Part shown: piece after piece, positions 23,193-33,491 of the stretch
Position numbering within the stretch: position 1 is the stretch's first letter
Layout: the number at the start of each line of letters is the position of its first letter
Assembly (NCBI GenBank): GCA_029553545.1
Contig: JAKPKU010000149.1
Coordinates: 1-33,491 of the forward strand
Reading direction: 5' to 3'
DNA from: Candidatus Cloacimonadota bacterium
GTDB lineage: Bacteria > Cloacimonadota > Cloacimonadia > Cloacimonadales > WRIO01
Length of the DNA: 33,491 nucleotides
Made by a program: the position numbers and the translations under genes
Notes under the pieces: generated by a model
The model's input: the letters and a program-made list of their open reading frames with translations, nothing else
The model's database searches: none
Told to the model about the DNA's origin: nothing

Positions 23193-23237
23193 AAAAATCT
23201 TAGATTTTTTACCTCACTTTTCACTAGTGAAAATACC
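23193..23237. repeat. Two hairpin-TACC elements (AAAAATC-TTA-GATTTTT-TACC; TTTTCAC-TA-GTGAAAA-TACC)
   Basis: Read directly: perfect 7-bp stems each immediately followed by TACC. Confidence 0.75.
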
Positions 23238-23264: not shown

Positions 23265-24149
23265 TTAAAATGTTATAGAGAAGATATTTTTGAAATTTAT
23301 GTTTACTCGTTTCCTACTTTCTCTCAATCTTTTTCTAATTATTGAATTTCTACTCCCTTTTTCTTTATCTAAGATATTCTTCATCTTATTTAATAAATGA
23401 TTATGTATTAGCTTTCCCAGACAGCAAAGTAATAAAACAATAAGTATCCAACTGAAAATCATAAAGAAGCAGCACGTAGGTTGGACATTTGTTGTATGAC
23501 CAATCGTAGTTCGACAACACGTAGCAGGAGCACAAGTAGGCTGTGCATACGTTGTATGACCAATCGTAGTTCGACAACACATAGCAGGAGCGCAAGTAGG
23601 CTGGGCACACGTTGTATGACCAAACGTAGTTCGACAACACGTAGCGGGAGTGCAAGCAGGCTGGACATACGTTGTATGACAACATAATTTATCTGCACAG
23701 ATAATATGATTTTTGCAAGCATATACAGTAGAAATAAGTATTACTAATACTGAAAATACAATATAAGCCTTTTGAAATACTTGAACAATATTAGGAGGTT
23801 TTATAGATACTTCAAATGAACAATATTTTGGCCAATCTGAAAGGGTATAACTTGTAATACCTAATTTTTCCTCAATTTTTAACAATTGGAGTAGATCGCA
23901 ACGATATTGATATCCTGTATACGTTCCAATAATATAGATAAAACCATTCAACAATAATGTGCCTACTGTAACAAAAAACAATACCCAAATATCCGTAAAT
24001 TTGCCTGACACAAGAGTTGCAAAATATCCTCCGACCCCTGTAATTAAAAATGCTAACTGAGAAAAAAAGTTTTCTTCTCTCTTTATCAAAGAATTTCGAA
24101 ATGATATATGTAATGCGCTTACCTCTGAATGTAAATCTTTATCTGACAT
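23265..24149 (-). CDS. Hypothetical multi-TM membrane protein with Cys-rich 20-aa tandem repeats
   Basis: TM segments (LAFLITGVGGYFATLV, IWVLFFVTVGTLLLNGFIYIIG, AYIVFSVLVILISTVYA, CFFMIFSWILIVLLLCCLG); RBS AAGGAG upstream; repeat HTTYAQPTCAPATCCRTTIG. Confidence 0.75.
   Translation of the reverse strand: MSDKDLHSEVSALHISFRNSLIKREENFFSQLAFLITGVGGYFATLVSGKFTDIWVLFFVTVGTLLLNGFIYIIGTYTGYQYRCDLLQLLKIEEKLGITSYTLSDWPKYCSFEVSIKPPNIVQVFQKAYIVFSVLVILISTVYACKNHIICADKLCCHTTYVQPACTPATCCRTTFGHTTCAQPTCAPAMCCRTTIGHTTYAQPTCAPATCCRTTIGHTTNVQPTCCFFMIFSWILIVLLLCCLGKLIHNHLLNKMKNILDKEKGSRNSIIRKRLRESRKRVNINFKNIFSITF
23471..23690. repeat. 60-bp tandem repeat, about 3.5 units, containing GTAG-flanked palindromes
   Basis: GTTGTATGAC recurs at 23491, 23551, 23611, 23671 (exact 60-nt spacing); inside the membrane-protein CDS. 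Confidence 0.95.
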
Positions 24150-25833: not shown

Positions 25834-25956
25834 ATTTCACGAAGTGAAATTACCTTATTATCAACAAAAATCGACTGATTTTTTACCTAACCTTTGCGAA
25901 GCAAAGTACCTAACCTTTACGAAGTAAAGTACCTAACCCGCAGCGTAGCGAGGACC
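25834..25956. repeat. Cluster of hairpin-TACC elements, including three 23-nt tandem units
   Basis: ATTTCAC-GAA-GTGAAAT-TACC; AAAAATC-GACT-GATTTTT-TACC; TAAC-CTTTGC-GAA-GCAAAG-TACC; TAAC-CTTTAC-GAA-GTAAAG-TACC; TAACCCGCAGCGTAGCGAGGACC. Confidence 0.9.
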
Positions 25957-33237: not shown

Positions 33238-33491
33238 TAGCCTTATTTGTATAACGACCACTGACTGCCTTCGATCAGCTAATAGATTCCATCACTCGAT
33301 TTCACGCAGTGAAATTACCTTTTCCCAAAACCTATCATTTACAATAATATAAATTTGTATATACAAATAGCCTTATTTGTATAACGACCACTGGCTGCCC
33401 TCGAGTACATAAACAAGATTCCATAACTCGATTTCACGCAGTGAAATTACCTTTTCCCAAAAACCTATCATTTACAATAACATAGCTTTGT
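33238..33491. repeat. ~130-bp tandem repeat, two units, the second cut by the window edge
   Basis: TAGCCTTATTTGTATAACGACCACTG at 33238 and 33368; CTCGATTTCACGCAGTGAAATTACCTTTTCCCAAAA...CCTATCATTTACAATAA in both. Confidence 0.9.

What the first reader, a model, noticed from the sequence alone, without database searches (positions are those of the whole stretch)
25834..25956. Hairpin-TACC array: stems change, the abutting tetranucleotide does not
Downstream of guaA, successive perfect hairpins each run straight into TACC: ATTTCAC-GAA-GTGAAAT, AAAAATC-GACT-GATTTTT, CTTTGC-GAA-GCAAAG, CTTTAC-GAA-GTAAAG. The last two are exact 23-nt units (TAAC-stem-loop-stem-TACC) differing by a compensatory G:C to A:T pair. 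A third 23-nt unit, TAACCCGCAGCGTAGCGAGGACC, has a wholly different GC-rich stem. Keeping pairing and the TACC foot while the stem sequence varies points to selection or processing of structure, not simple duplication. On the minus strand the layout is GGTA-hairpin-GTTA. A tetranucleotide 5' of a small hairpin is the architecture of REP elements recognised by RAYT (TnpA-REP, Y1 HUH) transposases, which use GTAG/GGAG; the parallel is inference.
Basis: partly seen in the sequence, partly recalled or inferred. Interest (0 to 1): 0.8.

Follow-up and report, generated by a model that had tools for sequence, protein, structure and literature searches.

The report
REP-like tandem hairpin repeat element
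The strip after guaA is one of several dozen copies of a species-specific dispersed repeat made of four to seven small DNA hairpins in a fixed order, each with the same short foot, and it looks like an unusual tandem version of the REP repeats that single-strand RAYT transposases handle.

Summary
On the minus strand 25956-25834 reads cap, GGTA-hairpin-GTTA twice, GGTA-AAAAATC hairpin, GGTA-ATTTCAC hairpin. It is one copy of a dispersed element: a unit pattern has 60 genome-wide matches against 0 for a reversed control; about 40 distinct arrays were read. Arrays follow a fixed unit order (95% concordance, 60% shuffled). Stems vary by compensatory changes with few G.U pairs while the foot stays. 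Copies are intergenic with no consistent direction relative to genes, so a DNA role fits better than an RNA one.

The RAYT/REP parallel is largely supported. The genome has three RAYT loci of two kinds; arrays lie 0.24 and 0.68 kb from two of them. RAYT loci across the phylum carry GTAN-footed hairpins and dense hairpin arrays. In a same-family genome a RAYT sits inside same-direction tandem GTAG-hairpin arrays; the same-genus genome shows neither RAYT nor (in 200 kb) arrays.

Differences: GTA abuts the stem (GGTA), all units point one way, stems are position-specific, and the RAYT genes are immediately flanked by other repeats (a three-way-junction element; a canonical GTAG REP). Which enzyme handles the arrays, and whether they move, is not shown. 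New variant of a known kind.

The parts
25934..25956 (-). Cap unit K (GGTCCTCGCTACGCTGCGG-GTTA), left end of the array in its reading direction; weak imperfect stem
   Evidence: K is first in nearly all cap-first arrays
25911..25933 (-). Unit a: GGTA-CTTTAC-TTC-GTAAAG-GTTA
25888..25910 (-). Unit a, compensatory variant: GGTA-CTTTGC-TTC-GCAAAG-GTTA
25866..25887 (-). Unit P: GGTA-AAAAATC-AGTC-GATTTTT
25855..25865 (-). Linker GTTGATAATAA between units P and Q
25834..25854 (-). Unit Q: GGTA-ATTTCAC-TTC-GTGAAAT, right end of the array
23193..23237 (-). Second, shortened and decayed array in the window: GGTA-TTTTCAC-TA-GTGAAAA-GTGA | GGTA-AAAAATC-TAA-GATTTTT (units b and P)
33424..33451 (-). Lone unit Q (GGTA-ATTTCAC-TGC-GTGAAAT) inside a roughly 132-bp tandem repeat
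33292..33319 (-). Lone unit Q in the second copy of the same tandem repeat

Best explanation
The strip is one copy of a non-autonomous composite REP-type DNA element (related in kind to BIMEs). Each unit is a short hairpin with a GTA-containing foot 5' of it on one strand (GGTA; in the usual RAYT register GTAN, with N being the first stem base). The element acts as single-stranded DNA: when that strand is exposed, for example at the replication fork, the hairpins fold, and a RAYT-type Y1 HUH transposase encoded elsewhere in the genome recognises foot plus hairpin, cuts nearby and joins the strand elsewhere, spreading whole arrays and sometimes single units. Shown: the repeat family, conserved foot and pairing, fixed unit order, RAYT genes in the genome and near two arrays, and RAYT-linked foot-tagged hairpin arrays in relatives. 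Inferred: recognition by a RAYT, cleavage, mobility, and which RAYT acts.
For: Dispersed family. Fixed order. Double-sided changes in 4 of 7 and 4 of 6 stem pairs, about 93% of cells paired, 3 G.U cells. RAYT genes: C113 reaches the NCBIfam REP-associated transposase cut-off and matches E. coli TnpA-REP 4er8, keeping W94, Q95, H101, R104 with E100 as D (positions from PMC6006769). Arrays 0.68 kb from the C113 gene and 0.24 kb from the C62 copy. The cap module is shared with element B, which brackets the C113 RAYT. In the phylum: RAYT homologs in 58 of 125 genomes, GTA feet on 149 of 419 hairpin strands at 29 RAYT loci, 13 dense hairpin arrays in 89 kb of RAYT loci against 0 in 200 kb of the same-genus genome and 0 in 284 kb of array-free own contigs. 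In the same-family genome G002 a RAYT lies inside same-direction tandem GTAGCA-hairpin arrays. Intergenic, no direction relative to genes.
Against: No RAYT gene is directly bracketed by these arrays; B and D occupy those places. The foot register differs from the phylum's usual GTAN-stem. No filled/empty insertion pair was found. Proximity to two RAYT loci could reflect clustering of repeats in long intergenic regions.
Confidence: 0.62

Rival explanations
1. Passive repeat: the composite spreads and changes only by recombination, slippage between the GTTAGGTA junctions, and template switching inside palindromes that copies one arm onto the other and so creates the compensatory changes. No dedicated enzyme acts on it now.
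For: Unit junctions are identical 8-mers, ideal for slippage; unit-number variants such as KaaPQ, KabcPQ, KKacPQ exist; no empty site seen; perfect pairing also follows from palindrome correction.
Against: The foot outside the stem is conserved as well, in units with unrelated stems; the order of units is kept; the arrays sit in many different contexts; dense arrays in the phylum go with RAYT genes.
Confidence: 0.25
2. RNA element: the array is transcribed from the upstream gene and acts as a 3'-end stabiliser, terminator or protein-binding RNA.
For: In the window it follows guaA in sense, 41 nt after the stop; P and R units end in T-rich tails like terminators.
Against: Across 41 arrays the upstream gene is antisense more often than sense and many arrays lie over 300 nt from genes; only 3 of 264 stem-pair cells counted are G.U; no Rfam family in the window.
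Confidence: 0.08
3. Integron-type recombination sites: the junction GTTAGGT fits the attC core GTTRRRY, and each hairpin would be a minimal folded site.
For: The junction matches the core consensus (general knowledge); integron sites also act as folded single strands.
Against: All cores point the same way, 23-25 nt apart, with no inverse core on the same strand and no cassette between them; no integron integrase above cut-off, best 79.9 against 265 bits, and all 14 control genomes ring equally.
Confidence: 0.01

Closest known systems
GTAG-tagged REP elements and RAYT/TnpA-REP (PMC3733652, PMC2817692, PMC6006769, PMC8266576)
   Same: Short extragenic palindromes in many copies with a conserved tetranucleotide 5' of the hairpin, found with RAYT genes; stem variation by complementary changes
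   Different: Foot is GGTA with GTA touching the stem rather than GTAG or GTAN before it; no RAYT directly bracketed by the element; several different stems in one element
BIMEs, bacterial interspersed mosaic elements (PMC2817692)
   Same: Composite of several REP-like units and other modules, intergenic, mosaic
   Different: BIMEs have REPs in alternating orientation; here all units point the same way, and PMC3733652 reports head-tail dimers absent or rare in most genomes
REPINs (PMC3116915)
   Same: Proposed non-autonomous mobile DNA handled by a RAYT in trans; ordered tandem REP arrays are reported there too
   Different: A REPIN is an inverted pair of REPs; here there is no inverted partner at the other end
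Tandem GTAGCA-GAAATC-TCC-GATTTC arrays around the RAYT of genome G002
   Same: Same-direction tandem foot-tagged hairpins, same taxonomic family, RAYT embedded in them
   Different: One stem sequence throughout, canonical GTAG foot, no fixed order of different units
Ends of IS200/IS605 insertion sequences
   Same: Same-direction hairpins with a 5' guide sequence, acting as single strands (PMC8266576)
   Different: No transposase gene inside; the genome's IS200-type copy with IscB at C186 shows no GGTA hairpin among those found around it

Membership tests
REP element | Short palindrome in many copies in one genome, mostly extragenic | tested here: met
   60 pattern matches and over 100 model matches genome-wide; 40 of 41 arrays outside predicted genes
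REP element | Conserved tetranucleotide (GTAG type) unpaired at the 5' foot | tested here: inconclusive
   Foot strictly conserved but GGTA; GTA core shared with RAYT-flanking hairpins of the phylum, in a register shifted by one base
REP element | Cognate RAYT gene flanked by the same repeat (REPtron) | tested here: inconclusive
   Two of three RAYT loci have an array within 0.7 kb, but the immediate flanks are elements B and D
REP element | Cleavage of the folded single strand by the cognate RAYT | not testable with these tools
   Needs purified protein
BIME | REP units in alternating orientation | tested here: not met
   All units in an array point the same way
REPIN | Two inverted REPs bordering a short spacer | tested here: not met
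   No inverted unit at either end
RAYT protein (C113) | Membership in the REP-associated Y1/HUH transposase family with guide-contact residues | tested here: met
   NF047646 80.5 bits, cut-off 80; 4er8 match with W94, Q95, H101, R104 kept and E100 as D; HVH motif in the sequence
Integron attC array | Integron integrase in the genome, core and inverse core around each site | tested here: not met
Rfam RNA families | Match above gathering score | tested here: not met
   No match in the window

The most novel reading that the evidence does not exclude
Each GTTA/GGTA junction is a cut-and-join site for a HUH enzyme, so that single hairpin cassettes with different stems but one shared guide foot are exchanged and ordered within arrays: a modular mode of REP assembly not described before.
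Probability: 0.12. Interest if true: 0.65.

Novelty: new variant of a known kind. Interest (0 to 1): 0.42.

Why it matters
If confirmed it widens the known forms of REP: same-direction composites with position-specific stems and a shifted foot. Because foot and stem vary independently here, and the same genome holds two kinds of RAYT with two other flanking elements, it is a natural test set for how RAYT enzymes read foot versus hairpin and which of them spreads which repeat. RAYT-linked hairpin arrays look common in this phylum, and the few papers found on its presumed identity did not deal with them.

Tried and rejected
Integron attC reading: rejected. RNA 3'-end or terminator reading: no consistent orientation and few G.U pairs, no Rfam family in the window. 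Phage or plasmid origin: no match in phage or plasmid records, and no exact match of one unit in viral contigs. Search for filled/empty site pairs by joining array flanks gave only self or neighbouring-array matches. A strict regular expression for element B found nothing because it was too narrow; BLAST then found 15 full copies. A multi-species RAYT alignment failed on wrong coordinates and was not repeated; residue conservation was read instead. A named-genome scan with the RAYT protein returned distant phyla only and did not name the organism.

Full report
What is there. On the minus strand the strip 25956-25834 reads GGTCCTCGCTACGCTGCGG-GTTA | GGTA-CTTTAC-TTC-GTAAAG-GTTA | GGTA-CTTTGC-TTC-GCAAAG-GTTA | GGTA-AAAAATC-AGTC-GATTTTT-linker | GGTA-ATTTCAC-TTC-GTGAAAT. 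It starts 41 nt after the stop of guaA, in the guaA direction. As single-stranded DNA it folds into the row of hairpins, z -4.7. The first unit in this direction is a cap with only a weak stem.

It is a dispersed family. The strip has 71 matches in its own genome, several over the full length. The unit pattern GGTACN{4,6}CTNCGN{4,6}GGTTAGGT occurs 60 times against 0 for the reversed control. A covariance model of the 7-bp unit finds over 100 units in the genome and only isolated borderline hits in two other genomes. A DNA search of 40 genomes (the own one among them) found no array in the same-genus genome and one 21-nt match in a same-family genome. A second, decayed array lies in the window at 23237-23193, and two lone ATTTCAC units lie in a tandem repeat at 33292-33451.

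It has a grammar. Tokenising gave about 40 arrays in the cap-first direction, with strings such as KabcPQ, KadcPQ, KacP, KabcR and KacKR. Here K is the cap, a a 6-bp stem (CTTTAC, CTTTTC, CTTTGC, CATTGC), b TTTTCAC, c CTTCGAC, d CTCTGAC, e CTTTCAC, P AAAAATC, Q ATTTCAC, and R CTTTCAC with a longer loop or a T-run tail. Pairwise order concordance is 95% against 60% for shuffles; for internal units alone 96% against 62%, reached by 0 of 5000 shuffles. The array is an ordered composite, not a random heap of hairpins.

Structure is kept while sequence varies. For 25 distinct 7-bp units 93.7% of cells pair and 4 of 7 pairs have changes on both sides; for 18 distinct 6-bp units 92.6% and 4 of 6. Only 3 cells are G.U. 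In array-rich stretches GGTA precedes 115 of 956 perfect hairpins against 0.8 expected; contigs without arrays show no such excess. Selection on a DNA hairpin and self-correction of palindromes both explain the pairing; they were not separated. The low G.U count and the lack of a consistent direction relative to genes speak against an RNA role.

Link to RAYT transposases. The genome has a RAYT at C113 (216 aa; NF047646 80.5 bits, cut-off 80), a second kind at C20 (200 aa; 60.3 bits, below cut-off), and a copy of the second kind at C62 that breaks off at residue 159; a matching remainder begins near the start of contig C130. The C113 protein matches E. coli TnpA-REP (4er8, E 6e-8) and keeps W94, Q95, H101 and R104, with E100 as D; PMC6006769 names these guide-contact positions and reports E-to-D in its subclasses 2.5 and 2.7. 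An array lies 0.68 kb from the C113 gene and another 0.24 kb upstream of the C62 copy. With roughly 50 arrays in 2.88 Mb a random point has a chance of about 2% of an array so near (own estimate), but repeats cluster in long intergenic regions, so two of three loci is suggestive only.

The immediate flanks of the RAYT genes are other elements. C113 is bracketed by inverted copies of element B, about 90 nt, which folds into a near-perfect three-way junction (z -12.8) and has 15 full copies in 526 kb. C20 is bracketed by inverted runs of element D, a canonical GTAG REP (GTAGGGGCGAGC-TNT-GCTCGTC). B shares the cap module with the array: cap-B fusions occur at L042 and L074.

Comparison within the phylum. 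RAYT homologs occur in 58 of 125 genomes. At 29 of those loci GTA stands within a few bases 5' of the stem in 149 of 419 hairpin strands, most often as GTAN abutting the stem, with tags GTAA, GTAG, GTAC and GTAT. Runs of three or more hairpins at most 16 nt apart: 13 in 89 kb of RAYT loci, 0 in 200 kb of the same-genus genome, 0 in 284 kb of array-free own contigs, 6 in 200 kb of the same-family genome G002. The same-genus genome has no RAYT match; G002 has one at C9:10597-10854, inside same-direction tandem arrays of GTAGCA-GAAATC-TCC-GATTTC. Multi-stem composites with outward GTAT feet lie around a RAYT in G028 (L112). Same-direction tandem arrays and multi-stem composites thus each have RAYT-linked precedents in the phylum; distinctive here are their combination, the fixed order and the foot register.

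How it most likely works. In the guide model (PMC8266576) the tetranucleotide 5' of the hairpin helps choose the cleavage dinucleotide; in one system changing GTAG to GTAC gave cleavage at GA and GT. Here GTA plus the first stem base gives GTAC in units a, c, d and e, and GTTA or GTGA follows the stem. That fits cutting at the unit junctions, but it is inference. Most left ends follow a run of T, which may be a target preference or part of the element. Mobility itself is not shown: no filled/empty pair was found.

Membership. The element meets the general REP features (extragenic, multi-copy, foot-tagged palindromes). The tag register and the cognate RAYT are inconclusive. It fails the REPIN definition (inverted pair) and the BIME definition (alternating orientation, PMC2817692). 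It works like a REP; filing it as a REP variant is reasonable but provisional.

A C-terminal sorting-type domain in a protein next to the C20 RAYT and the size of the held phylum suggest Cloacimonadota; this is inference only.

Noticed in passing
L014:14-105 and about 1120-1210 (contig C113); further copies in L029, L030, L031, L039, L042: Element B, about 90 nt, folds as single-stranded DNA into a near-perfect three-way junction (z -12.8); 15 full copies in 526 kb, inverted copies bracket the C113 RAYT.
   Followed up: partly
L034:600-985 and 1560-1800 (contig C20): Runs of a canonical GTAG REP (GTAGGGGCGAGC-TNT-GCTCGTC) in opposite orientation on the two sides of the second RAYT gene.
   Followed up: partly
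L009:1854-2330 (contig C62) and L026:110-264 (contig C130): A second copy of the C20-type RAYT breaks off at residue 159 next to GAGGGTGTTG, and the remainder begins next to CAACACCCTC, as if an insertion sequence with inverted ends split it.
   Followed up: no
L021:254-1869 (contig C186): IscB (NF040563, 337.5 bits) directly followed by an IS200/IS605 tnpA.
   Followed up: no
window 33252-33491 (- strand): Roughly 132-bp tandem repeat carrying a lone Q unit and the palindrome ATACAAATAAGGCTATTTGTAT; the same repeat recurs in L007, L030 and L042.
   Followed up: no
window 23265-24149 (- strand): ORF with about 20-residue Cys-rich repeats (TTYAQPTCAPATCCR type; Pfam Keratin_B2_2 weak match) between likely membrane segments.
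   Followed up: no
L168:10132-11420 (genome G002, contig C9): RAYT gene set inside long same-direction tandem arrays of GTAGCA-GAAATC-TCC-GATTTC, unit about 30 bp.
   Followed up: partly
L014:1580-1950 and many array left flanks: Runs of AGTGTGTTGT and AAAAAAGTTGATTGTCTTG segments form another repeat that often lies just outside the cap end of arrays.
   Followed up: no
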